Source: Synergistaceae bacterium (GTDB lineage Bacteria; Synergistota; Synergistia; Synergistales; Aminobacteriaceae). Taken from it: a stretch of DNA of 44,010 nt. How positions within the stretch are numbered: the first letter of the stretch is position 1; the number at the start of each line of letters is the position of its first letter. The position numbers were made by a program, and so were the translations under genes. Positions 1,333 to 44,010 of the stretch are shown here, piece after piece. The stretch is taken from the NCBI GenBank assembly GCA_017446055.1, contig JAFSRQ010000117.1:1-44010 (forward strand), in the 5' to 3' direction. The notes below the pieces were generated by a model. That model was not told where the DNA came from. It saw only the letters and a program-made list of their open reading frames with translations, and searched no databases.

Positions 1333-4300
1333 CTAGTCCTTGATTCTTACAGCTATAACAGGCTCGTAGATGACTCCGGGTTCAAGCCATGCGCTTACCG
1401 TTACAGTGTAGCTTTCCGGGACTCTCTCGATTGTTTCGCCGCTGTCATCGAGGAAGATTGCGTTGTCCGAGTCGCTGTCGTCGTTCTCTCCGTCAGGGAA
1501 TGAATGCCACACGAGCAATCCTCCTTCAGGCGCGGCCATGTCAAGCGAGACCGTGAACTCATACATGCCGGACTCTTCGACCTCCACAGCAGGAAGGACA
1601 GCCGCAACTATTTCGCCGGAATTTGCGATTTCAGCCATCATGTCAGTGGTGAGTTCTCCGCGCTCGTAGTACGCAATGCCGTTGACGAACTCAGGCTCTT
1701 GCTCCTCCGGGTCATTCGCAGGCGCAGGAGTCGTGTCATCCGTTATCACCATTATGATGTTCAGTGCCTTCTTTGCTGACAGCTTGTTGGCGTTCTTGGC
1801 GATAACCGTGAAGACAAACCTTCCTGTCTCATTCGTAGTCCCGTAGAGGCGGCCATTGTCAGTGTCAAACGTGAAACCTTCAGGAAGATTGCCGAGGCAT
1901 TCCCAAGTTACCGCAACAGGCTTTACTGACAGCTTGAAGTCGAAATCAATCGGCACTCCGGCTTTCCATGTCGCCAGCTCTATAGCTCTCGTCTCGAACT
2001 GAGGCTTGAGTGCCTTGATGGTCAGCTTCATTTTCTTGCCTATGTACTGTCCATCGCCTGAGCCGTTGTCGATTCTCACGTCTATCTTGTCGCTGAATGC
2101 CTTTAGCGGTGTTCCTGAGATAGTGCAGGTTTCACCCGTAGGACTCTGCTCATAGTCGAGGCCGTCAGGGAGTCCGTCAATATCCCACGTTATAGGTGTT
2201 ACTCCTTTAGCCTTGAGCGTTGATGTGTACGGTACACCCTCGCTGCCCTTCTTGAGAGTGCCCTTGATCTTGGGTGTTACTCCCTGAACCTTAAGCTCAT
2301 ACTCACCAACAACCTCTACAGCTCCGTTGCTGGCTATGATGGTCAGATCGTAGTCGTCAACTTCTGTGGGTTTGCCGGAGAATTTGCCCCTGTTGAACTT
2401 GATTCCCTCCGGCAGATCTCCCACAATCGTCCATTCCGTAGCCTTGAAGTTTACCAGCTTGAGCGTGAACGCATACTTCTTGTTCCACTTCGCCGTCTTC
2501 AGCGTGTCAGACTTGAATGACGGTGTTCCGCTCTTTACTCTCAGGCTGAATGACTTTGTCGTACGCCCCAGACTGTTTTCCGCAACGAGCCTGAATGTGT
2601 ATGTCGTAGCACTCCCCATAACAGCCCCGGAAATGAGTCCGCCCTCGTCAAGCTTCAGCCCTGTCGGAAGCGGGTTAGAGCCTTCCGCCAATGACCACTT
2701 CACATCGGTGCCTTCTGCTGACAGCTGGTAGTTGTACTCCTCGTAGATATAACCGTCGGGAAGCCTGGCTGTTGTCGTTATCGCGGGCGGGTTGAGGTCG
2801 TACACAGTAATCGTGAATGGCCGTGATACCTTATCCGCTACGTTTGAGGCAGTAAGCGTGAATGTGTACTGTCCCTTCGCCGCTAATGTCCCGGAGATAG
2901 TGCTGTTCTCTGTGTTCAGCGTCAGGCCGTCAGGGAGCGTTCCCTCAGTTACGGAGATGGTTACGGGCTTTGTCCCGGTCGTCTCAATGAGCGCGCTGTA
3001 TTCCCTCGTTACGTAGCCGAACTGCTCACCCCTGATTCTGAGTGTCGGAGCTGTACCCTCGATGAAAATCGTGAAGTCTTTGCTGTCAACACCTGCTGAG
3101 TTTGCCGCGGTCAGCCTTACGTCGAATGAGCCTGACACAGTCGGAACACCGCTGATTATTCCGTCAGCATTAAGTGTGAGTCCTCTGGGAAGAGTGCCGA
3201 TGTTGTTCCATATCATTGGCGCTGATCCTTCAGCCTCAAGCGTGAAATCATATGATGTGTTAATCATGGCCGAAGGAAGAGCCTCAGTTGTGATTGACGG
3301 CACTGAAGCCCTGATTGTGAGGGCGCGCCTTCCGCTTGACATTCCTGCTATGTTGGAGGCTGTTACGGAGAAGTTGAAGCTCCCGGCCTCTTCCGGCGTT
3401 CCGTAAATCCTGCCTGAGCTGACATCAAGCGACAATCCTTTAGGCAGTGCTCCGAATATGCTCCATGTTATCGGTGATGTGCCGTCCGCTGAAAGAACAG
3501 TGCTGTACTCAACTCCTACAGAGCCTTCCGGGAGCGTGTCGAATGATGCTGTCGACGGAGCTATGCCGTTCACTGTCAGTGCTAACGTCTTCACCGCCGC
3601 TCTCGACTCGCCTGCCGCGTTTGTGGCCTTCACGGTGAGCTGGAACACGCCCGCCTCTGTCGGTATGCCTGATATAGTCCCGGATTCTGACAGGGTGAGT
3701 CCTGCGGGAACATCGCCTGACACAGACCACGTTATCGGAGCTGTTCCATCTGCCGAAAGCACCGCACTGTAAGACTCATTGACCTTCGCCGCCGGAAGGA
3801 ATGCCGTTGTGATCTTCGGGGCAACTACTACAGACTGCTCAACCTCAAGCGTGAATGTCTTGCTGTCAGTGCCGTAGCTGTTGGACGCAATCACCGAGAA
3901 TGTGTAGCGTCCCTGCATCGTTGGAGTGCCTGAGAGAGTCCCGCTGTCGAATGTAATTCCGTCCGGGGGATTTCCAGACCAGTCCCACGTTATTGGCTCG
4001 CTTCCTGTTGCCGTGAATGTTGCAGTGTAGTACTCATTCGCCCGGCCTTTGTCGATGCTCACTGTAGTGATTGATGGTGCATCACCGTTCACCTTCAGCG
4101 TGTAGGTCTTCTCATCGCTGCCGAAGTCGTTCTCAGTCTTGAGCGTGAATGTGAATGTCCCTTCCTCCGCTGGTGTACCTGACAGTGTGCCGTTGTCGTT
4201 GAAGATCACCCCTTCAGGAAGCGTGCCGGAAAATTCCCACGTGTACGCGCTTCCAGCTACAACAGTGAAGCTAGCTCCGTATGGAGTCCCGATATGAGCA

Positions 4301-7300
4301 TCAGGGATTGACGTTGTCGTTATCGTCGGCGGAACGTCTTCAACCTCCATCTCATATGTGCATGAGTCAGAGCCTGCCGAGTTGGTTACTGTTACTGTTA
4401 CCGTGTAAGGTCCGGGAAGTGTGAAACGCCTGCTTGACCCTATTGTGCAGTGGAAGCCTTCTGTACCTATCTCAGTCCAGACAGAATACCAGCACTCACT
4501 GGGAAGCCCCGTTACTGTCCATTCCAGCGGCGCAGTGCCTGTAACGAGAATATCAGCATTGTAACGCTCTCCGACTTTGCCGTTCGGGATTGTCTGTGTG
4601 GTAATGCTCGGTTTCTCTGCTGTTACTGCAACAGGACTGTTTACGGTGATGGTAAGCTCCTTCGATGTCTCAAGCTCTCCGTCAGTGTCATCACTCTCAG
4701 CAGCGGCAATTGCTGTGAACGTATAATCCCCGGTTGCATCAGGAGTTCCTGAGATTACGCCCGTATCAGGGTCGATGTCCAGCCAGTCGGGCAGATCGTC
4801 AGCGTCCCACGTTACAGAAGTCTTGCTGAGAGCTTCGAGCCTTGTGGAGTAAAGGTTGTCCTGAATGGCCGCAGGGAGAGTCTCCGTAACTATTTCCGGT
4901 TTGTCTGACGGGTAAATGAAGACAATCATCTTGCTGGGGTCGTCAGCTCCGTTAAGGTTATAGCCTGAAGGCATCGCGAAGCCTGTATTGTACTCGTATA
5001 TCACGCATTCGGGGAGCGAGTAGAAGGTTGCCTTTCCTGTGTCGGGGTCAAAAGTCTCTGCATAGCTCGCGCCGTATCCGCGTACGCTGTCGGTGAATAC
5101 GTTTGCGAGATTTTCGCCGAGTATGCCGGAAATGTCAGCAACATAATACGGACTGTCGGCATATTTCTTCACGTCAAGCCCTGTGAGGTTCTGCGGTGAG
5201 AGGCTCAGGTTTGACGGGTTCAGGTTTACGTTTGCGCTGAGGTCGAGTGCCGGAATCTTGTTGCCGTAGCAGCTGAGATCCACAAGTGCCGTGTTACTGC
5301 TCAGGTCTAGCTCTTCAAGCTGGTTGTCGCGGCAGCACAGAACACGCAGCTGGAGATTTGCCGAGAGATTAAGCTCTGTTATGCGGTTGGCCTGGCACCA
5401 GAGAACTTCAAGCTCAGTATTCCCGCTAAGGTCTAACTCCTCAAGCCTGTTGTTGTCGCAGTGAATGGTCTTGAGCGCGGTGTTATTGCTGAGGTCTAAC
5501 TCTTCGAGCTGGTTGTTGTCGCAGTCAAGGTATGTCAGCTTATTGTTCGCCGACAGGTCAAGCTCGGTCAGATTGTTCATCCAGACAGTAAGGTTAGTCA
5601 GCTCTGTGAAATACTCGATGCCCTTCACTGAAGCAATCCCCATGTTGTAGACGTTGATGTAGGTTACCGCGTTCAGTTCGTCAGAGTCTAGCCACATATC
5701 ACCGTCGGTGTCAAGGTTGCTGCTGACGTATGACCTGAAGCTGTCATCCGGGAAATGAGCCGCGTCAATCGGAATCCCGTCAAGCTCGGAGATGTTCAGC
5801 GTGAATGTCCGGGAGTCCTGGCCGCCCTCATTTGTAGCGGTAACAGTAACGGATAAAGTCCCGGAGGCTGTCAGAGTCCCGTAAATCAATCCATCTGACG
5901 TGGCACTAAGTCCATTGTACAGTCCGTCAACAGTCCACGTAACAGGCGTATCACTCTCGGCTTCGAGCTGGTATGAGTATGGCTTGTTGAGTCTTCCGTC
6001 AGGCAGAGAGGACGTAACTATTTCCGGCGGATTTGACTCTGACCCGTTCACCGTGAGGACGAATGTTTTGACCGTGCTGTAATTTCCGTTCTTCACCGTA
6101 ACCGGGAATGAGTATGTCCCTGCTGTCGTAGGAGTTCCGCGTATATAGCCGCTTGAGTCCATTTCGAGTCCGCCAGGGAGATTCTCGGCTGACCACACCC
6201 ACGCAAGATATGAGGGCAGGTTTTCGCCGTACACATAGAACCATGCAGTGTAGTATTCTCCGGCTGTAGCTTCAGGCAGAGTGGAGTCTGTGGTGATTAC
6301 GATTGTCGGAGCCATAACATCAAGCGTGAAGAGTGTGTAGTCTTCCCCGGCAGAGTTGGCCGCGTAAATCCCGAACGAGAAGCTGCCCACCTCTGAAATA
6401 GCACCATAAAGCACACCGCTGGAGCTGAGTGATACTTCTGCAGGAAGCGTGCTGCCTTCTTCAGTCCTCCACTTTATAGGCTCTGTGCCGTTTGCCTGGA
6501 GCTGAATGCTGATGATGTCCCCCAGAACGAACTGACCCAAGTATGACGATGACGTTATTGCAGGGGCTATAGTGTTGTCGGTTACTGTGAGGAAAAATTC
6601 GCGCGTGTCATATGTCGACTCGTTAGCGGCACTCAGGGTGAATGAGTACGTGCCTTCCTTTGTGGGAGTGCCTGAGACAGTATCCCCCGCAAACGTCAGT
6701 CCTTCCGGAAGTTTCCCGGATGTGAGCGACCAGGTTATAGGAGTCGTTCCTGACGCAGTGAAAGTAGTGGAGTATGACTGACCGACAAAGGCTTCACCGA
6801 GTAATGACGCTGTCGTTATTGACACGGCCTCGATGGTCTCGTCGCTTGGGTCATCACCGCCGGGGGCTACATCGGAATTTCCGTAAACCCTTCCGCTTGT
6901 GCCGTCCCTGTAGCCGTAAATCCTGTTCTGCTTGATGCCGGCCTCAAGAGTTACGCGCGAGTAGTTGTTGCTGATCTCGTTCCCTGAATTGTAGTCAGTG
7001 AAGTAGCCGATAATGCCGCTTGCGTATGAATGCTCTCCCGGTGCTGAGGATTTGATCTTTGTGGACGAGTCTTTTCCGCCGACCTTGCAGTTTGTGATTA
7101 CCGTTTCGTCCCAGCGGTTTGCTCCGGCAATGCCTCCTACAAGCATATCGTAGGTATCTGAATGTGTGCCGGTGATTGTTCCGTCAAACGTACAGTTTTC
7201 GACACGGCCACCGAGAATGTACGCTACGATTCCGCCGACGTAAGAACTGTAGCCTCCTGACCAAGCATAGCCTGTGTTCCTGTTTGAGACCGCTACCCTG

Positions 7301-7719
7301 CCTGAGACTTTCAGGTTCTTGATTGTTCCTCCGCTCATCACCCCGAAAAGCCCGGTGTAAGTCTGGTTCGTCCGGGCAATGTACACGGTGATTGTGTGGT
7401 TTCCGCCGTCAAAAACGCCGTTGAAGGGAGTCTTGTTGTAGTTCCATTCGTCTTCGTCCGGGCCTATAGGTATCCAGTCCCTGTACTCCCTAAGGTCGAT
7501 GTCTGCTGTCAGGCGGTAATATTTCCCGGTGTTGATCTTGCCGGAGTAAATATCATCGCGGACTTTGATGAGGGTTTCGGCAGAGTCGATTTCCCACGCA
7601 TGAGCCTCATCGTAGCCTTCTGTCTCGTAGCCTGCCTGACCGTAGACAACCGCGAACGCACTCGAAGCGGCAAGCATGATGACCAATAACGCCGCCGCCA
7701 ACTTTCTTAGAGTACGCAT
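1333..7719 (-). CDS. Giant secreted multidomain protein: GLUG-like region, Ig-like repeats, EF-hand-like loop and LRR
   Basis: About 2128 aa when started at the ATG at 7717-7719, which has AAGGAGG upstream. An ATG 25 codons earlier lacks an RBS and precedes the signal peptide (MRTLRKLAAALLVIMLAASS). Domains from DNA position: a GLUG-like region (residues about 100-270); four Ig-like repeats (about 295-650); an EF-hand-like loop DTDGDMWLDSDE (about 670); six or seven 21-residue leucine-rich repeats (about 675-840) of the form LDCDNNQLEELDLSNN; twelve more Ig-like repeats (about 940-1990); and a C-terminal domain of about 130 residues. Ig repeats share PxITTxxLPxGxxGxxY, ITWxxxGxLPxGLxL and SGTPTxxGxYxFTxxAxN. 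No LPXTG motif or C-terminal membrane anchor is seen. It is probably a surface adhesin or stalk protein (inferred). Confidence 0.9.
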   Translation of the reverse strand: MRTLRKLAAALLVIMLAASSAFAVVYGQAGYETEGYDEAHAWEIDSAETLIKVRDDIYSGKINTGKYYRLTADIDLREYRDWIPIGPDEDEWNYNKTPFNGVFDGGNHTITVYIARTNQTYTGLFGVMSGGTIKNLKVSGRVAVSNRNTGYAWSGGYSSYVGGIVAYILGGRVENCTFDGTITGTHSDTYDMLVGGIAGANRWDETVITNCKVGGKDSSTKIKSSAPGEHSYASGIIGYFTDYNSGNEISNNYSRVTLEAGIKQNRIYGYRDGTSGRVYGNSDVAPGGDDPSDETIEAVSITTASLLGEAFVGQSYSTTFTASGTTPITWSLTSGKLPEGLTFAGDTVSGTPTKEGTYSFTLSAANESTYDTREFFLTVTDNTIAPAITSSSYLGQFVLGDIISIQLQANGTEPIKWRTEEGSTLPAEVSLSSSGVLYGAISEVGSFSFGIYAANSAGEDYTLFTLDVMAPTIVITTDSTLPEATAGEYYTAWFYVYGENLPSYLAWVWSAENLPGGLEMDSSGYIRGTPTTAGTYSFPVTVKNGNYSTVKTFVLTVNGSESNPPEIVTSSLPDGRLNKPYSYQLEAESDTPVTWTVDGLYNGLSATSDGLIYGTLTASGTLSVTVTATNEGGQDSRTFTLNISELDGIPIDAAHFPDDSFRSYVSSNLDTDGDMWLDSDELNAVTYINVYNMGIASVKGIEYFTELTNLTVWMNNLTELDLSANNKLTYLDCDNNQLEELDLSNNTALKTIHCDNNRLEELDLSGNTELEVLWCQANRITELNLSANLQLRVLCCRDNQLEELDLSSNTALVDLSCYGNKIPALDLSANVNLNPSNLSLSPQNLTGLDVKKYADSPYYVADISGILGENLANVFTDSVRGYGASYAETFDPDTGKATFYSLPECVIYEYNTGFAMPSGYNLNGADDPSKMIVFIYPSDKPEIVTETLPAAIQDNLYSTRLEALSKTSVTWDADDLPDWLDIDPDTGVISGTPDATGDYTFTAIAAAESDDTDGELETSKELTITVNSPVAVTAEKPSITTQTIPNGKVGERYNADILVTGTAPLEWTVTGLPSECWYSVWTEIGTEGFHCTIGSSRRFTLPGPYTVTVTVTNSAGSDSCTYEMEVEDVPPTITTTSIPDAHIGTPYGASFTVVAGSAYTWEFSGTLPEGVIFNDNGTLSGTPAEEGTFTFTLKTENDFGSDEKTYTLKVNGDAPSITTVSIDKGRANEYYTATFTATGSEPITWDWSGNPPDGITFDSGTLSGTPTMQGRYTFSVIASNSYGTDSKTFTLEVEQSVVVAPKITTAFLPAAKVNESYSAVLSADGTAPITWSVSGDVPAGLTLSESGTISGIPTEAGVFQLTVKATNAAGESRAAVKTLALTVNGIAPSTASFDTLPEGSVGVEYSTVLSADGTSPITWSIFGALPKGLSLDVSSGRIYGTPEEAGSFNFSVTASNIAGMSSGRRALTIRASVPSITTEALPSAMINTSYDFTLEAEGSAPMIWNNIGTLPRGLTLNADGIISGVPTVSGSFDVRLTAANSAGVDSKDFTIFIEGTAPTLRIRGEQFGYVTREYSALIETTGTKPVTISVTEGTLPDGLTLNTENSTISGTLAAKGQYTFTLTASNVADKVSRPFTITVYDLNPPAITTTARLPDGYIYEEYNYQLSAEGTDVKWSLAEGSNPLPTGLKLDEGGLISGAVMGSATTYTFRLVAENSLGRTTKSFSLRVKSGTPSFKSDTLKTAKWNKKYAFTLKLVNFKATEWTIVGDLPEGIKFNRGKFSGKPTEVDDYDLTIIASNGAVEVVGEYELKVQGVTPKIKGTLKKGSEGVPYTSTLKAKGVTPITWDIDGLPDGLDYEQSPTGETCTISGTPLKAFSDKIDVRIDNGSGDGQYIGKKMKLTIKALKPQFETRAIELATWKAGVPIDFDFKLSVKPVAVTWECLGNLPEGFTFDTDNGRLYGTTNETGRFVFTVIAKNANKLSAKKALNIIMVITDDTTPAPANDPEEQEPEFVNGIAYYERGELTTDMMAEIANSGEIVAAVLPAVEVEESGMYEFTVSLDMAAPEGGLLVWHSFPDGENDDSDSDNAIFLDDSGETIERVPESYTVTVSAWLEPGVIYEPVIAVRIKD

Positions 7720-7815
7720 AAGCTGTAACCTCCTTGTGTAAAATTTTTGCGGAGTAAAAATAAGGAATGAATATAATTTTACTACAAGCAGCAAGTAATT
7801 ACAGAGTTATGCGGA

Positions 7816-9159
7816 TTACTCGCCCCTCATTTCACGCAGTGCGCTCCAGGTGAAAGGCACAGCAAGAAGGAATGTCAGGCCGTCAGCAACAGGCTGTGCA
7901 GAGATTATCCCCGTCAGCCCGAAGAACTTCCGCCCGAAGTGCAGAGCAAGTGCCAGCATGAATCCCTGCCTTGATGCCGCCAATGTAGTAGCCCGGATTG
8001 TCCTGCGTGTGTTCTGCAAGTACATGTTCGAGATAGTAACGAAGCTCACAGACCAGTACACGAGGCACTCATAGCGCAGAGCCTGCGAGCCCAACGCGAT
8101 AAGCTCAAGGTCATCGGGACGGAAGAGCGCGATTATCCTCTCAGCGAAGGCATATCCCGCTATGCTCAGGGAAGCGCAGTAGACCGCCGTAACTCCCACG
8201 CTGAACCAGAAAGCACGCCTCACACGCTCATATTTCCCCGCGCCGTAGTTGAAGCCGCAGACAGGCTGGAATCCCTGGCCGAAACCCAGCACTATAGACG
8301 TCGCGAACATGGTTACACGGAAAACGATGGACAGTGCCGCAATCGCCGTATCACCGTAAGCACCCGCAAGCTGATTCATGTATGCCATCGAGATGCTTGC
8401 GAGTCCCTGCCGCCCCAGTGAGGGAAGCCCCCCCGCCGCAATCTCACGGTAATGTGCCAGTGTAGGCCGGAAGTTTCCCAGCCTCAGAGGGATTCCGTCC
8501 CGCCTGCCTGAGAGTGTCAGAAGAAGCATGAAGCTGACGAACTGAGAGATCATAGTAGCAAGAGACGCGCCCGCAACACCCATCCCGAAAACGAATATGA
8601 ACACGGGATCAAGAATGATATTCAGCAATGCCCCCGAAGTTATACCCAGCATTGAGACAAAAGCATTCCCCTGAAAACGCATCTGGTTGTTCAGCACGAA
8701 CGATGACATGATGAACGGCGTACCGATTAAGATATACCTGAAGTAAGCCCGCGCATAAGGCAGTATAGTATCAGTAGAGCCTAGAATGTGAAGGATGTCG
8801 TCCATGAACACGAAGCCCAATGCCGCAATCATTATCCCGGTGAGGAGCGAGGTGAAGAATCCTGTTGACGCTATAAGCTCCGCGCTCCTGCGATCCCTTG
8901 CCCCCAATGCCCGCGAGATATAGTTTGCGCTTCCCTGGCCGAAGAAGAATGCAACCGCCTGGATGAATGCCATGTACGAGAATATCACGCCGACTGCCGC
9001 GGGGGACTGGACATCTATCCCGGCAACGTAGTATGTATCGGCCATGTTGTATATCGCGCTGATCATCATTGTGATTATTGACGGGACTGCGAGACGAAGC
9101 ACTAACTTGCTTACGGGGTGGGTAGTCATTAATGTGTATTTTCTGTCTTGAGAGTTCAT
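7816..9159 (-). CDS. MATE family multidrug/toxic compound efflux transporter
   Basis: About 447 aa from the ATG at 9157-9159, which has CAGGAGGC 10 bases upstream. A longer frame from 9186 has no RBS. The pattern is typical of MATE transporters: two bundles of six membrane helices, opening with LVLRLAVPSIITMMISAIYN-MADTYYVA and repeating FGQGFQPVCGFNYGAGKYER in the second half. These proteins exchange Na+ or H+ for cationic drugs or metabolites across the inner membrane, but the substrate cannot be read from sequence. It is divergent from the sugar transferase at 9232, with only about 70 bp between the two starts. Confidence 0.93.
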   Translation of the reverse strand: MNSQDRKYTLMTTHPVSKLVLRLAVPSIITMMISAIYNMADTYYVAGIDVQSPAAVGVIFSYMAFIQAVAFFFGQGSANYISRALGARDRRSAELIASTGFFTSLLTGIMIAALGFVFMDDILHILGSTDTILPYARAYFRYILIGTPFIMSSFVLNNQMRFQGNAFVSMLGITSGALLNIILDPVFIFVFGMGVAGASLATMISQFVSFMLLLTLSGRRDGIPLRLGNFRPTLAHYREIAAGGLPSLGRQGLASISMAYMNQLAGAYGDTAIAALSIVFRVTMFATSIVLGFGQGFQPVCGFNYGAGKYERVRRAFWFSVGVTAVYCASLSIAGYAFAERIIALFRPDDLELIALGSQALRYECLVYWSVSFVTISNMYLQNTRRTIRATTLAASRQGFMLALALHFGRKFFGLTGIISAQPVADGLTFLLAVPFTWSALREMRGE

Positions 9160-9231
9160 CGAATAAGCCTCCTGATAATGCTTCATGATATACTAGCAAA
9201 AATTCCATGAAAGGCGTATATCATTGGCAAG

Positions 9232-15012: not shown

Positions 15013-16341
15013 TCAGACTTTGCTGTGTAAATATTTGGGACTGAATATGATTCTCCCGTACATTATGACCGTCTGCAACAGCGACAGCAGTTCGGCCATA
15101 GGCAACGCCCACACAACCCCGTACTCGCCCGCAAAGTAATTCATCACGAACATCAACGGCATGTACAGCACGCACTGACGGCAAACGCTTAAGATGAACG
15201 ACGCACGCCCAGCCCCCATAGCCTGCAAAGCGTTCACGAACACGAAGAACACCGCGAACAATATACTGCTCGACAGCTTCATTCTCAGGAACTGAACGGC
15301 ATACCCGAAGGCCTCCGGGTCATTCACGAACATAGCCACGATATTCCGCGAGAACACAAAGCACCCCGCCACCATCGCCAGAGTCAGTGCAACCGTGAAC
15401 TTCAGCGCGAACATCAGGAATGCCCGGTACCTGTCCCAGTCCTCCGCGCCAATGCTGAAGCCCAACAACGGCTGAATACCCTGCCCAGTACCCATAGCAA
15501 CAAGGCACGCTAGCTGCTCAATCCTCATGGCCACGCCCGCCGCCGCCACAGCCATATCACCGTAAGCGGACATCAGCGAGTTCATCACCATCTGCGAAAT
15601 GCTCATCAGCCACGGGTCAAGGCACGCAGGAATCCCAATCGCCAGGACTCCCGCCGCAATACCGCCATTAACCCGGAATTTTCTGGGGCTGACACTCAGC
15701 GAGGATTTCCCCAAGACGAAATAGCCCGCGTAATACATTGCTCCTATCACTATGCTGACGGACGTAGCTATTGCCGCGCCTGTTATCCCCCAGCCGAACC
15801 AGAGAATCATCACAGGGTCGAGAATGACGTTGAGCATGTTCCCGAAAATCTGCCCGGTCATGGCGGCTGAAGCGTGATTTTCCGCCCGCATTATTCCCCC
15901 GCTTGCCATGCTGAAGAGGATAAACGGTGTAGAGGCCACTACGATTGACAGGTAGCTATAGGCCAGCTTGAACGTCTCAGGGCTTGCACCGATTGCGCGT
16001 AATATCCTGTCGATGAAGAACATGAAGACGACAGCCACAGCAACGCCCGTGAGTATGCTTCCCCACACACAGAACGAAGCTATATTGTCGGCGCGTTCAG
16101 TCTGTCCTGCTCCGAGAGAGCGCGAGATGAAGGACATTCCTCCGGCCATGAAGATTATTCCGAGAGCGATTAGCACCATGAAGATTGGCGAGGCTAGGGA
16201 GACTGCCGCGAGCTGCAAGGGGTCTCCAGTCTGGCCGATGAAGAACGTATCAGCGAGGTTGTAGATCATGAGCATGATCTCGATGATGATTGCCGGGATT
16301 ATGTTGGAGACTGCCTGACGGGTTACGGATTGCTGGCGCAA
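15013..16341 (-). CDS. MATE family efflux transporter (second copy)
   Basis: 442 aa with about 12 membrane helices and MATE hallmarks: IEIMLMIYNLADTFFIGQTG near the N-terminus, and GTGQGIQPLLGFSIGAEDWD at the matching place of the second half. It is divergent from the copy at 7816-9159. The most likely start is TTG at 16339-16341 with AAAGGA about 11 bases upstream. No in-frame ATG or GTG lies between it and the first helix. It sits 34 bp behind rsmD in the same direction and may be co-transcribed. The substrate cannot be inferred. Confidence 0.9.
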   Translation of the reverse strand: MRQQSVTRQAVSNIIPAIIIEIMLMIYNLADTFFIGQTGDPLQLAAVSLASPIFMVLIALGIIFMAGGMSFISRSLGAGQTERADNIASFCVWGSILTGVAVAVVFMFFIDRILRAIGASPETFKLAYSYLSIVVASTPFILFSMASGGIMRAENHASAAMTGQIFGNMLNVILDPVMILWFGWGITGAAIATSVSIVIGAMYYAGYFVLGKSSLSVSPRKFRVNGGIAAGVLAIGIPACLDPWLMSISQMVMNSLMSAYGDMAVAAAGVAMRIEQLACLVAMGTGQGIQPLLGFSIGAEDWDRYRAFLMFALKFTVALTLAMVAGCFVFSRNIVAMFVNDPEAFGYAVQFLRMKLSSSILFAVFFVFVNALQAMGAGRASFILSVCRQCVLYMPLMFVMNYFAGEYGVVWALPMAELLSLLQTVIMYGRIIFSPKYLHSKV

Positions 16342-19295: not shown

Positions 19296-20660
19296 CTACA
19301 GCATGAACGTCGAAATTCCGTATATCGCCAGCACAGCAACGACTCCCTGAATCAGCGTCGCCATTGTCTGAGCCTTGTACGCCGTGTTGAGATCCATATC
19401 GCTGAACTGAGTCACGACCCAGAAGTACGAGTCGTTTGCGTGGGACACAACCATTGCGCCGCTACCGATTGCGAGGGTAGCCAGAACACCGCCCATAGGT
19501 GAGCCGAGTCCGAGTGATGCCAGCATGGGGGCGATAATCTGGGCTGTTGTTACGATTGCCACCGTCGACGAACCCTGAGCTGTCTTCAACGCCGCCGCTA
19601 TGATGAACGGAAGGAATATCCCGAAGTTGTAGCTTGAGAGTGCCTCGCCGATGTAGTTGCCGACTCCTGAAGCCGCGATGACTGCACCAAGTCCACCGCC
19701 CGCCGCCGTAATCATGATGATGTTCGCGCCGTCCTTGACCCCCGCGCCAATCCAGCCGTTTGTTACCTCCTCAGTGAACGGAGCGAGGAAGAAGCACAGC
19801 ACGACTCCTATCGACAACGCTATAACGGGGTTGCCCAAGAACGACGAGACGATGAAGAGGGTTGATTCTTTTCCGCCGATTTTCGCGAGGGTTGAAGGGT
19901 AGCTGATGAATGAGCTGAACGCGATTAGGATTAACGGTATCAGTATGGGCGCGAATGACTTGAAGGCTGACGGAAGAGTCCCGTACTTCGCTTTGAGTTC
20001 CTCGTACGAGCCGCCTTCCTCCGTGTTTGTGTCGAACGGGACAGGGAGCTTCGGCCCGGCGATGAGAGCATAGATGTATCCTGCAAGCACTGACACAATC
20101 GAGACCGCTATACCCCACATGATGACCATTCCGAGATCCGCTCCGAGCTCATTAGCCGCCGCTATCGGGCCGGGTGTCGGGGGGACCAGGGTGTGAGTCG
20201 CGTAGAGACCTGTCGACAGAGCTATTGCCATTGTGGAGAGGCTGACCTTGCTTCTTCTGGCAAGCGACTTGTTGAGGGACGAGAGGATGACGAAGCCTGA
20301 GTCGCAAAATACGGGGATTGATACTACCCAGCCTATGAGGGACATTGCGAGGGCAGGACGTTTTTCGCCGACTACCTTCAAGACCGAATCAGCCATCGTG
20401 AATGCCGCGCCGGATTTCTCCAGCATAGCCCCGATTATCGTACCCAGAAGAATCACGATACCGATTCCCCTGCAAGTCCCCCCGAAACCGTTAAGGATGG
20501 TGTCGAGGACTTTCGCGGGTGCCATTCCGACCGCCAGCCCCATAGCCAGAGCCACAGCGAACAATGCCACGAACGGATGGAACTTCATCTTGGAGATGAG
20601 AAGCACCATGAGGATAATTGCCACAACGAGAATTACCACGAGCATAGAACCCTGTACCAT
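19296..20660 (-). CDS. GntP family gluconate:H+ symporter-type permease
   Basis: About 454 aa from the ATG at 20658-20660, which has AGGAAGGAG upstream. A longer frame to 20831 has no RBS and overlaps the divergent gene. It is highly hydrophobic, with about 12-14 helices. Family-typical segments include VCDSGF-like VFCDSGFVILSSLNKSLAR, THTLVPPTPGPIAAANELGA and GSGAMVVSHANDSYFWVVTQ. GntP members import gluconate or related hydroxy acids with protons. The exact substrate is unknown, since no gluconate kinase or sugar-acid enzyme lies beside it. Divergent from the acetyltransferase fusion gene. Confidence 0.93.
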   Translation of the reverse strand: MVQGSMLVVILVVAIILMVLLISKMKFHPFVALFAVALAMGLAVGMAPAKVLDTILNGFGGTCRGIGIVILLGTIIGAMLEKSGAAFTMADSVLKVVGEKRPALAMSLIGWVVSIPVFCDSGFVILSSLNKSLARRSKVSLSTMAIALSTGLYATHTLVPPTPGPIAAANELGADLGMVIMWGIAVSIVSVLAGYIYALIAGPKLPVPFDTNTEEGGSYEELKAKYGTLPSAFKSFAPILIPLILIAFSSFISYPSTLAKIGGKESTLFIVSSFLGNPVIALSIGVVLCFFLAPFTEEVTNGWIGAGVKDGANIIMITAAGGGLGAVIAASGVGNYIGEALSSYNFGIFLPFIIAAALKTAQGSSTVAIVTTAQIIAPMLASLGLGSPMGGVLATLAIGSGAMVVSHANDSYFWVVTQFSDMDLNTAYKAQTMATLIQGVVAVLAIYGISTFML

Positions 20661-20686
20661 TGTGAGGAAAACTCCTTCCTGAAAAT

Positions 20687-20714
20687 TTGTGTGTGAATGG
20701 AAATCATGTAGAAT
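20687..20714 (+). promoter_or_regulatory. Possible promoter for the acetyltransferase fusion gene
   Basis: TTGTGT (20687-20692) and TAGAAT (20709-20714) are 16 bp apart, in the gap between divergent genes and upstream of the ATG at 20748. Confidence 0.35.
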
Positions 20715-20747: not shown

Positions 20748-21818
20748 ATGAATGAACGTATGAAGATGACCGCCGGGGAACTCTACAACCCTGCTGACGA
20801 GGAACTGTACACGCTTAGGACGAAGGCGCACAGGCTCTGCATGATGTACAACCAGCTATACGACACGGACGAGGATGAACGCTACAGGATACTTCACGAG
20901 CTTCTGCCGTATTCAGACCGCGAGGCGTATTTCCAGGGACATATCTTCTTCGACTACGGGATAAACATTCACATCGGGAAAAACTTTTACGCCAACTTCG
21001 GGACGACGATACTTGATGTCTGCCCGGTGAGAATCGGCGACAATGTCATGCTCGGAACGAACGTATCACTCCTCACTCCCATGCACCCCCTGCGCTGGCA
21101 GGAACGCAACGCCCGGCCTGACGCTGACGGGAACATGATTCAGCTTGAGTACGGGAAGCCCATAACGGTTGGTAGCAACTGCTGGATTGCCTCAAACGTA
21201 ACCGTAACAGGAGGGGTAACGATTGGGGACGGGTGCGTGATAGGTGCGGGGAGCGTGGTTACGAGGGACATTCCGGCGGGTATGCTTGCGGCTGGGAATC
21301 CTTGTCGCGTAATCCGGCCAATCGAGAATGACGGGGCATTGTCAGGGCGGGAAGATGCTGAAACAGTGCATTACTGGCTGTATGCGCCGGGCCATAATGC
21401 ATGTATGTGGGAAAATTTCTACTCGCACGGTGTCATGGGAATAGGCTGGGGTGAACTCGGCGATCTGAATGCATATCCCGACATGAAAGCTATACATGAG
21501 AAACTCTGTGAAGCCTATGGTGATGACTCATACATGAACATTTCGCTTGCTTTGTGGCAGTTTTCGCATGACCTGAAGCCCGGTGATGTGGTCTTCGCCA
21601 AAAATGGACGCTCTGAGATTGTCGGCATGGGAATAGTTGAGTCTGGTTACGAATTTTGCGGCAAAGGTGAATCTGGCTATGCTTCTCACGTCCGCAAAGT
21701 CAGGTGGACTCATAAAGGGAATTGGCCTATACAACAAACGCTGCCCATGAAGACCCTGACAGATATAACCAGCTGCACGGACTATGTGAGAATAATATCC
21801 GCACTCTTCCGTTCGTAA
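20748..21818 (+). CDS. Maltose/galactoside O-acetyltransferase-like protein fused to a McrB-N-like (EVE-like) domain
   Basis: 356 aa. Residues 1-190 form a complete Maa/NodL/LacA-type sugar acetyltransferase: an N-terminal Mac segment (MTAGELYNPADEELYTLRTK), hexapeptide-repeat turns and the catalytic His in LLTPMHPLRW, ending at AAGNPCRVIRPI. After a linker of about 14 residues, residues 204-356 form a different domain: HYWLYAPGHNACMWENFYSH, then GVMGIGWGELGDLNAY, LALWQFSHDLKPGDVVFAKN, RKVRWTHKGNW and KTLTDIT. This matches my memory of the N-terminal domain of McrB-type AAA+ restriction proteins, an EVE/YTH-like fold linked to modified-base reading. No AAA+ part follows. The second part is visibly more AT-rich. 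The RBS is GAAAGG. The two parts are seen directly; their joint function is unknown. Confidence 0.8.
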   Translation: MNERMKMTAGELYNPADEELYTLRTKAHRLCMMYNQLYDTDEDERYRILHELLPYSDREAYFQGHIFFDYGINIHIGKNFYANFGTTILDVCPVRIGDNVMLGTNVSLLTPMHPLRWQERNARPDADGNMIQLEYGKPITVGSNCWIASNVTVTGGVTIGDGCVIGAGSVVTRDIPAGMLAAGNPCRVIRPIENDGALSGREDAETVHYWLYAPGHNACMWENFYSHGVMGIGWGELGDLNAYPDMKAIHEKLCEAYGDDSYMNISLALWQFSHDLKPGDVVFAKNGRSEIVGMGIVESGYEFCGKGESGYASHVRKVRWTHKGNWPIQQTLPMKTLTDITSCTDYVRIISALFRS

Positions 21819-21830
21819 TCTTCATTAGGG

Positions 21831-21865
21831 AAAAAAAATGACCTCCCTGAAATTTTGGGGAGGCC
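21831..21865 (-). terminator. Rho-independent terminator at the end of the rseP-ispG operon
   Basis: On the minus strand GGCCTCCC and GGGAGGTC form an 8-bp stem followed by ATTTTTTTT, just after the stop at 21874. It also lies directly behind the convergent fusion gene. Confidence 0.85.
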
Positions 21866-21873
21866 GTGAGTTA

Positions 21874-22497
21874 CTAGCTTCCAGTTCTGCGGAACATGCC
21901 TAGAAGTTTGTCCGTTATGTCAAGCCTTGTGCTTGTGGCTGTTACCTGATAGCAATATTCACCCTTGATGCACACTGCCTGCTTCTGATACAAAGGTACA
22001 CCTTTAGCTTTTGCCGTAACAATAATGCCGGGATATTTCCTGCCTGTGAAAGTTACGTTTGCCCGGTCTATCTTTACGTCTGTGTATCCCATTTCGCTGT
22101 ATGCCTGTGATAATTTGCCGGAGATTTGCCTTATGAGCGCGTCAAGTTCCTCATTGACGGACTCGGAGACAACAGCACTCCCCATCACTCCCAAGTTTGT
22201 TATCTCTATTGTTACGATTGCTGTATTATCAGCCGTAACAGCACAGAAGGACGGAACTTTGCCGTTTGTGAGTTCTGCCAATGTAGGCGAGGCAGACATA
22301 ACTACCCCGTTAAGCCTTGCGATTTCCCTGCGCGATAATATCTTCCAGTTTTCGCCGAAATACGCTCTGACTCCCAGCGACTGGTTAGTGTACATTCCGT
22401 TCCTGACCCTGCCGATTATGTAGCTCTCATCCGCCGCAAAAGCCGACTGGCACAGCAGAAGCGCAAGAACAATGAGAACAGCGCGAAACTTCCTCAT
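21874..22497 (-). CDS. Secreted protein, PsbP/DcrB-like size and layout
   Basis: 207 aa from the ATG at 22495-22497, four bases after the ispG stop and preceded by GGGGATAAGG. A longer frame from 22584 lies inside ispG and lacks a signal peptide. A signal peptide (MRKFRAVLIVLALLLCQSAF) is followed by a domain of about 175 residues with YFGENWKILSRREIARLNGV and TFTGRKYPGIIVTAKAKGVP. The 'exposure of a small exported alpha/beta protein' layout (FxxxWxxxS near the start) recalls the PsbP/Mog1/DcrB fold, but the match is weak. Last gene of the rseP-ispG operon. Function unknown. Confidence 0.8.
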   Translation of the reverse strand: MRKFRAVLIVLALLLCQSAFAADESYIIGRVRNGMYTNQSLGVRAYFGENWKILSRREIARLNGVVMSASPTLAELTNGKVPSFCAVTADNTAIVTIEITNLGVMGSAVVSESVNEELDALIRQISGKLSQAYSEMGYTDVKIDRANVTFTGRKYPGIIVTAKAKGVPLYQKQAVCIKGEYCYQVTATSTRLDITDKLLGMFRRTGS

Positions 22498-22501
22498 GAC
22501 C

Positions 22502-23551
22502 TTATCCCCTTTCCCCGCCGAAAAACTCCGGCAGCACCGCTTCAAGCTCGCTGAATTTGTATTCCCCGCAGGATTTCCCCTCACGGAACAATACCGCCCC
22601 TCCCGGAGTCCCTGCGATTCCGAATTTCGCGTGCCTGGCTTCCTTCGGGCCGTTGACCTCGCAGCCCATAACCGCCACGCTCACACCGTCCGGCAAATCC
22701 GCAAGCATAGGCTCAACGATCTTCACCAGCCTCATGACATCAGCCCGCCTCCGTCCGCAAGTTGGACACGAAATCAGGTTTACCCCTCTCGTGCGAATCT
22801 CAAGTGCCTTCAGAATCTCGTAGCCGACTCTAACTTCGCGTTCAGGCTCATCCGTCAAAGACACCCGCAAAGTGTCCCCAATCCCCCGCATGAGCAACGC
22901 AGAAATACACGCCGACCCCTTCACGACTCCCCCGTCGCCCGGCCCGGCCTCAGTGAGTCCAATATGCATGGGGAAATCAGGATACGCCGCCGCGATAAGC
23001 TCATTAGCCCTGACGCATTCGGGAACACTTGAGGATTTCGCCGACAATATTACGTCCGTGAAATTCTGCGACAACAACAATTCCGCCTGCTCACGCACCG
23101 CGATGAAGAGAGCTTCTGCACGGTCTCCTTTTGCCGCGTCAAGCTGGGACTGTGAGACGCTTCCACCGTTTGCGCCGATTCGAATCACGACACCTGAATT
23201 TTTCGCGCAAGATATTACGTCATTGAGGCGGTTCAATGGCATGTTGCCGGGATTTATGCGGATTGCCCTGCACCCTGCCTCCATCGCAAGAATCGCAAGC
23301 GCAGGGTCAAAATGAATGTCCGCCATAATCACGAGCCTTGTCGACCCCACGAGAGCGCGCAAATCGTCAGCAAACTTCGCGTCAGGAAGCGCAGCCCTCG
23401 CCATCTCGCACCCGCAGGCTATGAGCCTCTCACACTGCGCAAGGCACTCCTCCCTTTTGTCGAGCGAGACCTTGAGCATACTCTCAACACGCACAGGAGC
23501 ATTCCCGCCGATTGTGAGTCCGTTAATGCTGACCTGCCTTCTGCTGTTCAT
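22502..23551 (-). CDS. ispG: 4-hydroxy-3-methylbut-2-enyl diphosphate synthase (IspG/GcpE)
   Basis: 349 aa. IspG carries out the penultimate step of the MEP isoprenoid pathway, converting MEcPP to HMBPP with a [4Fe-4S] cluster. The TIM-barrel half ends near residue 250. The cluster ligands are visible as SCPTCGRR (about 263-266) and MGCEVNGPKEARHAKFGIAG (Cys about 297), with GTPGGAVLFREGK after them. The segment usually reading QSMTNTDTRD reads ESMLKVSLDKREE here, a clear departure from the family consensus. The ATG has AAGGAGG seven bases upstream, overlapping the stop of rseP. Isoprenoids made here also supply the undecaprenyl carrier for surface glycans. Confidence 0.94.
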   Translation of the reverse strand: MNSRRQVSINGLTIGGNAPVRVESMLKVSLDKREECLAQCERLIACGCEMARAALPDAKFADDLRALVGSTRLVIMADIHFDPALAILAMEAGCRAIRINPGNMPLNRLNDVISCAKNSGVVIRIGANGGSVSQSQLDAAKGDRAEALFIAVREQAELLLSQNFTDVILSAKSSSVPECVRANELIAAAYPDFPMHIGLTEAGPGDGGVVKGSACISALLMRGIGDTLRVSLTDEPEREVRVGYEILKALEIRTRGVNLISCPTCGRRRADVMRLVKIVEPMLADLPDGVSVAVMGCEVNGPKEARHAKFGIAGTPGGAVLFREGKSCGEYKFSELEAVLPEFFGGERG

Positions 23552-42055: not shown

Positions 42056-44010
42056 ATGGACATTAACAGGCTGACACGAAAAAGCCAGGAGGCACTGAAC
42101 GCTTCACAGGCTATAGCGTCAGAATACAATCACCAGCAAGTAGACTGTGAGCATTTGCTGTATGCCATGCTCCGGGATTCCGACGGGCTTATACCGCAGC
42201 TGCTCCAGAAGATGAATATAGATACCCGTGAAATCACAAAGGCAGTCGATGAAGAGCTGTCGAAATTGCCCCGCGTAACATTCTCAGGAACAGAGCAGGG
42301 TAAAATCTACATCACCCAGAGGCTTGAACGATTATTCGCACGCGCTGAGGAAAGAGCAAAATCCCTCAAGGATGAATACATTTCGGTTGAACATCTATTC
42401 ATGGCCATGCTTGAGGAAGGCACTAACACCCCCGCCGGAAGAATATTCTCCCGCTTCGGCATCACCGGGGAGAAATTCCTGCGGACGCTTAACGATGTAC
42501 GAGGCTCACAGAGAGTCCAGAGCGCAGACCCTGAAGCAACGTATGAGGCACTGGAGAAATATGGCCGGGACTTAGTGCAGGCAGCCCGTAACAACAAACT
42601 TGACCCTGTAATCGGACGCGATGACGAAATACGCAGGGTGATACGCATATTGTCCCGCAAGACCAAGAACAACCCCGTCCTCATAGGCGATCCCGGTGTC
42701 GGAAAGACCGCAATCGTTGAGGGGCTAGCTCAGAGAATAGTACGCGGAGATGTCCCAGAAGGACTCAAGGAACGCACAGTATTCGCTCTGGACATGGGTT
42801 CGCTTGTGGCGGGGGCAAAGTACAGGGGGGAATTTGAGGAGAGACTCAAGGCCGTGTTGAACGAGGTCAAGAACAGCGACGGGAGAATCATTCTGTTCAT
42901 TGACGAGCTTCACACTATAGTCGGGGCGGGCGCGGCGGAGGGTGCTGTTGACGCGGGTAACATGCTGAAGCCGATGCTGGCACGGGGGGAATTGCACTGC
43001 ATCGGTGCTACCACGACTGACGAATACCGCAAGTACATCGAGAAAGACGCGGCACTTGCCCGGAGATTCCAGCCCGTTGACGTTGAGCAGCCATCAGTAG
43101 AAGACACTATATCGATACTCAGGGGGATTCGCGAGAAGTTGCAGGTACACCACGGAGTCGCAATCAGGGACAATGCTCTTGTTGCGGCGGCGGTATTGTC
43201 GAACAGGTACATCACGAACCGCTTCCTCCCGGACAAGGCTATAGACCTCGTTGATGAAGCCTGCGCTATGATTCGGACGGAGATAGACTCTCAGCCCTCA
43301 GAACTTGACGCGGCTGCCCGGAAAGTTATGCAGCTCAAGATTGAGGAAGTCTCACTGAAACACGAAGAAGACGAAGCCAGCAAGGAACGCCTTAAAGTGT
43401 TGCAGAAAGAGCTTCAGGAGGCCGAGTCGGAAGAAGAGACTCTCAGGACACAGTACGAGAACGAGAAGAAAGCTATTGCTGACATACAGAGTTTCAGGCG
43501 GCAGATTGAGGAGACCAAAGCGAAAATTGACGAGGCGCAGAGAAATGGCAACTGGGAATTAGTCTCAGAGTTGCAGAACGGCGAGCTTCCGAGACTGAAG
43601 CGCGTATTGGCCGGGCAGGAAGCAAAACGCTCTGACATCCTCAAAGGCTCGGACGACAACAAACTTCTGCGTGTTGAAGTTACTGATGACGAGATCGCCG
43701 ACATAGTATCAAGGTGGACAGGAATCCCGGTAACAAGACTCCTTGAGGGCGAGCGGGAAAAATTGCTGAAGCTGGACGAGATTCTCCACAAGCGCGTGAT
43801 AGGCCAGGACGAAGCAGTGAGTCTCGTTGCTGATGCTGTGTTACGCGCCAGAAGCGGCATCAAGGATCCCAAGCGGCCAATCGGCTCATTCATCTTCCTC
43901 GGGCCTACTGGTGTCGGCAAAACTGAGCTGGCCCGGACACTGGCTGAAGCTCTGTTCGACTCTGAGGACAACATGATACGTATAGACATGAGCGAGTACA
44001 TGGAGAAGCA
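42056..44010 (+). CDS. clpB: ATP-dependent disaggregase ClpB, N-terminal three quarters (cut by window edge)
   Basis: An open frame from ATG 42056 (GGAGTGAG upstream) runs to the right edge, about 651 codons of an expected 860. ClpB is the hexameric AAA+ chaperone that resolves protein aggregates with DnaK. Seen: the N-domain (1 to about 150: [34 protein letters not shown]), NBD1 with Walker [12 protein letters not shown] (about 212) and Walker B ILFIDELH, the pore loop [10 protein letters not shown], the coiled-coil middle domain (about 415-530), and NBD2 starting with [20 protein letters not shown] and Walker [11 protein letters not shown] (about 618). The middle domain distinguishes it from ClpA and ClpC. 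Confidence 0.97.

What the first reader, a model, noticed from the sequence alone, without database searches (positions are those of the whole stretch)
20748..21818. Sugar O-acetyltransferase fused to a McrB-N-like (EVE-like) domain
A full Maa/LacA-type acetyltransferase is joined in one frame to a domain that I recognise from the N-terminus of McrB-type restriction AAA+ proteins (WYAPG.NA..W..FY..GIMGIGW.ELGDL and LALWQF...KPGDVVFAK). Such domains are thought to read modified bases. The restriction motor is absent. The second part is more AT-rich, so it looks acquired. Either a chance fusion to a McrB fragment, or a new protein that couples acetyl transfer to binding of a modified nucleic acid.
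Basis: partly seen in the sequence, partly recalled or inferred. Interest (0 to 1): 0.65.

Follow-up and report, generated by a model that had tools for sequence, protein, structure and literature searches.

The report
McrB restriction remnant fused to acetyltransferase
A bacterial sugar acetyltransferase gene has run into the leftover front piece of a defence gene (McrB) that once sat just downstream, so the odd two-part protein most likely records the decay of a restriction system rather than a new kind of enzyme.

Summary
The open reading frame is real: residues 1-193 are a complete Maa/LacA-type sugar O-acetyltransferase and residues ~196-354 are a complete EVE/YTH-like domain whose relatives, wherever enough sequence was read, are the specificity domain of McrB GTPases followed by McrC. 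The origin is visible in the genus: in G022 the same maa-ispG interval holds an intact mcrB-mcrC operon starting at the end of maa; G027 and G023 hold broken copies there; other species have only maa, often followed directly by the terminator. In the window the AAA+ motor and mcrC are gone, the maa terminator follows the domain, and the maa/mcrB junction (out of frame in the three relatives) is in frame. The fusion occurs in 1 of 43 genus, 83 family and 188 phylum genomes. Best explanation: a McrBC relic fused by deletion and a junction change to a still-functional Maa. The domain itself is undamaged (29/29 near-invariant positions kept, no stop), which fits either very recent truncation or retained base binding; these could not be separated. 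A purpose-built acetyltransferase guided by a modified base is not supported, but not excluded.

The parts
20748..21326 (+). Maa/LacA-type sugar O-acetyltransferase part (residues 1-193); ends at the point where the relatives stop (RVIxxIE*)
   Evidence: Pfam Mac + Hexapep, NCBIfam maltose O-acetyltransferase; stand-alone 184-199 aa in the 19 relatives of the genus read in detail
21327..21365 (+). Former maa/mcrB junction, 39 nt (13 codons), now in frame; holds an out-of-frame ATG in the old stop region (AATGAC) and a possible in-frame TTG start
   Evidence: Spacing to the conserved V-H-Y-W codons is 44, 40 and 49 nt in G022, G027, G023 (out of frame) and 39 nt here
21333..21809 (+). EVE/YTH-like domain = specificity domain of McrB, complete, without motor
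   Evidence: 45-51% identity to McrB specificity domains; PADLOC PDC-S02 1e-14; AF2 + Foldseek
21801..21830 (+). 3' deletion junction: McrB linker (ISALF) runs into RS-stop (TAA 21816-21818) and then at once into the terminator; motor and mcrC missing
   Evidence: Sequence and comparison with G022
21828..21864 (+). Native maa terminator-like hairpin (AAAAAATGACCTCCC...GGGAGGCC), found directly after maa in G003/G040/G030 and after mcrC in G022
   Evidence: DNA comparison
19299..20696 (-). Flank: GntP-family permease, divergent neighbour of maa in the relatives
   Evidence: Pfam GntP_permease 1.4e-100; conserved synteny
22502..23551 (-). Flank: ispG/gcpE, convergent neighbour; far side of the variable interval
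   Evidence: Pfam GcpE 4.2e-108; 87% identical to ispG of G022

Best explanation
The second half is the relic of an EVE-type McrBC (type IV restriction) operon that sat immediately downstream of maa, between maa and its terminator. SHOWN: intact, decayed and empty states of this site in related species; the domain is McrB-derived; motor and McrC are absent. INFERRED: in this lineage a deletion removed the McrB motor and all of mcrC, and a small indel or stop loss at the maa/mcrB boundary put the two frames in register. The gene is then translated from the maa start as one 356-aa protein. The Maa part probably still acetylates sugars as the usual trimer; the EVE part hangs on the C-terminus, may still bind a flipped modified base, and has no motor or nuclease to act through. 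It is most likely passive baggage on its way out.
For: G022:C13 carries maa, then mcrB (EVE + AAA_5) and mcrC (PF10117), then the same terminator and ispG. G027 has the same operon with stops and deletions, G023 a shorter stub. The 19 relatives read in detail have a stand-alone Maa with a stop at the fusion point. In G003, G040 and G030 the terminator follows maa directly, as it follows the EVE part here. Junction phase 39 nt here against 44/40/49. No McrC anywhere in the held genome; no motor or McrC in the window. The fusion is in 1/43, 1/83 and 1/188 genomes of genus, family and phylum. Other relatives with readable context (3 genome contigs, 8 viral contigs, G011, G022) are motor-bearing McrB; plasmid hits are annotated AAA ATPase or DUF3578 proteins, the one checked having mcrC next door.
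Against: The domain shows no decay: no stop, 29/29 near-invariant positions kept, while functional McrBs deviate at 0-5 in a leave-one-out count. Its branch (0.62) is close to functional ones (up to 0.58) and below the G027 pseudogene (0.99). The cut falls neatly at the domain boundary. The window domain does not group firmly with G022/G027 in the tree, so descent from the very same operon is likely by position but not proven by phylogeny. The nearest relative by Maa, G004, has neither mcrBC nor a remnant.
Confidence: 0.8

Rival explanations
1. Retained reader: after loss of motor and nuclease, the EVE part is kept because it still binds a modified base (phage or own), giving a trimeric Maa with three EVE heads that acts as a decoy, sensor or competitor; acetylation itself is unrelated.
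For: Domain fully intact: 29/29 near-invariant positions, no stop, not accelerated in relative-rate comparisons; predicted fold complete. Under neutrality, an intact frame with at most one core change has a probability of about 1% at 0.05 substitutions per site.
Against: Single genome; a recent deletion explains the intactness equally well: the bound d<~0.04 is small beside dS 0.46 to the nearest held species. GC3 is lower than in most neighbouring genes, as expected if codon selection is relaxed, though this is weak.
Confidence: 0.1
2. Purposeful two-domain enzyme: EVE guides acetyl transfer to a modified nucleic acid or to a sugar-modified base.
For: EVE domains are fused to GNAT-like acetyltransferases in a recognised class (PMC7641849), so an acetyltransferase-EVE pairing is not absurd.
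Against: GNAT and hexapeptide (left-handed beta-helix) acetyltransferases are unrelated folds (general knowledge); Maa is stand-alone in the rest of the genus; the mcrBC operon at the same site explains the fusion without function.
Confidence: 0.03
3. Assembly or base-calling artefact at the junction: maa ends and a separate EVE stub begins out of frame, or (less likely) a longer mcrBC was collapsed.
For: One draft genome (149 contigs, 85% complete); the phase of the junction rests on one assembly.
Against: Both flanks and the order gntP-maa-EVE-terminator-ispG agree with the synteny of relatives, so a chimeric contig is unlikely.
Confidence: 0.07

Closest known systems
EVE-McrB / McrC type IV restriction systems (Bell et al. 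2020, PMC7641849; Bell et al. 2024, PMC11090510)
   Same: The second domain is the same domain as in these McrBs, 45-51% identical; related species carry the whole operon at this locus
   Different: No AAA+ GTPase motor, no McrC; fused in frame to Maa
Maltose/galactoside O-acetyltransferase (Maa/LacA, hexapeptide family)
   Same: Complete Mac cap and hexapeptide repeats; 82-93% identical to stand-alone Maa of the nearest relatives
   Different: Extra C-terminal 163 residues; scores 173 bits against the equivalog cut-off of 314, so the substrate is not assigned
GNAT-EVE (often PIN-GNAT-EVE) proteins described in PMC7641849
   Same: An acetyltransferase with EVE at its C-terminus
   Different: GNAT is a different fold; those proteins form a recurrent class, this one occurs once; no PIN domain
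EVE-HNH endonuclease VcaM4I (PMC7897488)
   Same: Foldseek matches its structure; model for 5mC/5hmC base flipping
   Different: No nuclease here; its pocket residues P24/W82/Y130 were not mapped onto this domain
PADLOC PDC-S02 candidate defence proteins
   Same: Their N-terminal ~110 residues align to the EVE part (1e-14)
   Different: The rest of PDC-S02 proteins is absent

Membership tests
Maa/LacA hexapeptide O-acetyltransferase | Mac capping motif plus hexapeptide left-handed beta-helix repeats | tested here: met
   Pfam Mac 3e-16, Hexapep 8.5e-13, both over cut-off
Maa/LacA hexapeptide O-acetyltransferase | Equivalog-level match to maltose or galactoside acetyltransferase | tested here: not met
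   173 of 314 bits and 154.6 of 347 bits: family yes, substrate unassigned
EVE/YTH-like (PUA superfamily) domain | Fold match to EVE/YTH structures | tested here: met
   AF2 pLDDT 88.4; Foldseek PH1033 5.1e-4, YTHDF2 5.1e-4, VcaM4I 1.3e-3, prob 0.99-1.00; TM-scores only 0.36-0.52
EVE/YTH-like (PUA superfamily) domain | Pfam EVE or YTH sequence match | tested here: not met
   No Pfam family at E<1 for the domain
EVE/YTH-like (PUA superfamily) domain | Binding of a flipped modified base | not testable with these tools
   Needs a binding assay; core residues conserved
McrB (type IV restriction) | AAA+ GTPase motor | tested here: not met
   ORF ends at the linker; no motor in the locus
McrB (type IV restriction) | Specificity domain homologous to those of McrB | tested here: met
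   Same domain in McrB of Sanguibacter, Actinomyces, Methanobrevibacter, G011, G022 and viral contigs
McrBC system | Adjacent mcrC (PF10117) | tested here: not met
   None in the window or the held genome (85% complete); present in G022 and decayed in G027
GNAT-EVE fusion class | GNAT acetyltransferase domain | tested here: not met
   Hexapeptide family, no GNAT match

The most novel reading that the evidence does not exclude
A host has domesticated the reader domain of a broken restriction system by fusing it to a trimeric sugar acetyltransferase, making a multivalent binder of modified nucleic acid (decoy, sensor, or acetyltransferase directed to sugar-modified phage DNA).
Probability: 0.06. 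Interest if true: 0.7.

Novelty: new member of a known kind. Interest (0 to 1): 0.22.

Why it matters
It shows, in one genus, intact, decayed, fused and empty states of one McrBC site: a worked example of how a defence operon placed behind a housekeeping gene can leave a two-domain protein that looks like a new invention. It is a caution for guilt-by-fusion inference and for domain-architecture surveys. If the reader domain proved functional, it would be an example of domestication of a restriction specificity domain.

Tried and rejected
Pfam, NCBIfam and PDB sequence searches gave nothing for the second domain: a limit of profile sensitivity, not evidence against EVE; the weak CntK, ribosomal S5 and pelota matches were treated as chance. 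The first structure prediction with 8 sequences was poor (pLDDT 69) and was repeated with 15 (pLDDT 88). The phage collection gave no relative. A search for motor or McrC remnants elsewhere in the window gave only short weak matches, e.g. at 42662-42742 and 43892-43969 (E 0.006 and 0.19), not counted. A chimeric contig was considered and rejected on synteny. The R-to-M change in the GRG motif first looked like decay, because R was invariant in the first 8 relatives, but K and C also occur there in viral McrBs, so it is not counted.

Full report
OBSERVATION. The frame 20748-21818 (+) codes for 356 aa without interruption. Residues 6-54 and 139-173 match the Pfam Mac and Hexapep models, and the best NCBIfam model is maltose O-acetyltransferase over residues 2-190, below its equivalog cut-off. 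Residues from about 196 on match no Pfam or NCBIfam family and no PDB sequence. A contig-wide search nevertheless found the same domain, 45-51% identical, in Methanobrevibacter, Sanguibacter and Actinomyces. In L003 and L005 it is the N-terminal part, and in L002 an internal part, of a protein with a Walker-A AAA+ motor, followed by a McrC-like gene.

FOLD. With an alignment of 15 relatives the domain is predicted with mean pLDDT 88.4. Foldseek returns PH1033 (an EVE-family protein by general knowledge), YTHDF2 and other YTH domains, MJECL36 and the EVE-HNH nuclease VcaM4I, at E of about 5e-4 to 1e-3 and probability 0.99-1.00. TM-scores of 0.36-0.52 are modest, so the assignment is to the EVE/YTH group and not to one member. 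PADLOC's PDC-S02 candidate defence models also match it at 1e-14.

THE SITE IN THE GENUS. A close Maa (E below 1e-60) was found in 38 of the 43 held genomes of the genus; in the 19 relatives read in detail it is stand-alone, 184-199 aa. The EVE domain occurs in 6 of 43 genomes. In four of them it lies directly behind maa: G022, G027, G023 and the window. In G022 there is an intact operon: mcrB (EVE + AAA_5) whose frame overlaps the end of maa, then mcrC (PF10117), then the terminator hairpin and ispG. In G027 the same operon is present with an in-frame TAG, frameshifts and deletions in mcrB and mcrC; in G023 only a short stub with a large internal deletion and a TGA remains. In G003, G040 and G030 the hairpin AAAAAATGACCTCCC...GGAGGCC follows the maa stop directly; in the window the same sequence follows within about 10 nt of the EVE stop. 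G011 and G009 carry McrB with this domain at unrelated places.

THE JUNCTIONS. From the equivalent maa codon to the conserved V-H-Y-W of the domain there are 44 nt in G022, 40 in G027 and 49 in G023, all out of frame with maa, and 39 in the window, in frame. At the 3' end the McrB linker stops at ISALF-RS-stop. The motor and mcrC are absent from the window, and McrC is absent from the held 2.39-Mb genome, which is 85% complete. A deletion plus a small change at the gene boundary explains everything seen. The order and exact number of steps are inferred.

HOW OLD, AND IS IT KEPT? The domain is undamaged: it agrees with the functional consensus at all 29 positions that have at most one exception in 14 other McrB domains, whereas those domains themselves deviate at 0-5 positions in a leave-one-out count. 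Its tree branch is 0.62, against 0.14-0.58 for functional rows and 0.99 for the G027 pseudogene, and relative-rate comparisons with G022 are not significant. A simple neutral simulation (assumed indel rate, so rough) gives about 9% probability of such intactness at 0.03 substitutions per site and 1% at 0.05. The nearest held species, G004, is at dS 0.46 for maa, so a truncation late in the lineage suffices and no selection need be invoked. Recency and retained function cannot be separated with one genome.

DISTRIBUTION. The fusion is found once: 1 of 43 genomes in the genus, 1 of 83 in the family, 1 of 188 in the phylum. All eight viral-contig relatives carry the motor, one of them cut by the contig end. 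Plasmid relatives are annotated as AAA-family ATPases or DUF3578 proteins, and the one examined is followed by an annotated mcrC. No phage record matches. On the Maa tree the four occupied sites are scattered and need four changes. So either an old insertion was lost many times, or the site is swapped by recombination through its conserved flanks; the latter is my inference. The scan of public genome contigs used exact peptide seeds and would miss distant fusions.

LITERATURE. EVE-McrB is the commonest EVE architecture in defence, in nearly 300 genera (PMC7641849). The same paper describes a GNAT-EVE class; the word 'hexapeptide' does not occur in it. VcaM4I shows how an EVE domain flips 5mC/5hmC (PMC7897488). 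The most likely activity of an intact domain is thus modified-base binding, but this is inference by homology here.

VERDICT. The most likely explanation is a McrBC relic fused to a working Maa (0.80). A retained reader (0.10), an assembly or base error (0.07) and a purpose-built enzyme (0.03) remain as rivals. The finding is an ordinary evolutionary accident in an instructive setting, hence the modest interest score.

Noticed in passing
21874-22584 (-): 236-aa ORF with a signal-like N-terminus and no Pfam match, between the fusion and ispG; distant homologues (29-30% identity) lie behind maa in G012 and G035 too, so this interval hosts variable cargo.
   Followed up: partly
L033 (G004:C64), between maa and ispG: The nearest relative by Maa has neither mcrBC nor the usual terminator after maa but about 1.1 kb of other sequence with broken frames: another occupant of the same variable interval.
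   Followed up: partly
1333-7794 (-): 2153-aa protein with 12 He_PIG Ig-like repeats and PKD, LRR and GLUG matches: a large repeat-rich surface-type protein.
   Followed up: no
7819-9186 (-) and 15016-16341 (-): Two MatE-family transporters about 6 kb apart.
   Followed up: no
L002 3741-6359: The Methanobrevibacter McrB holds two EVE-like copies, one at the very N-terminus (25.7% identical to the window domain) and one next to the motor.
   Followed up: no
L058 2269-4776 (viral contig): This McrB carries a further insert of about 100 residues between the EVE domain and the motor (YWWLNANPKIWSF...), which looks by eye like another EVE-like domain.
   Followed up: no
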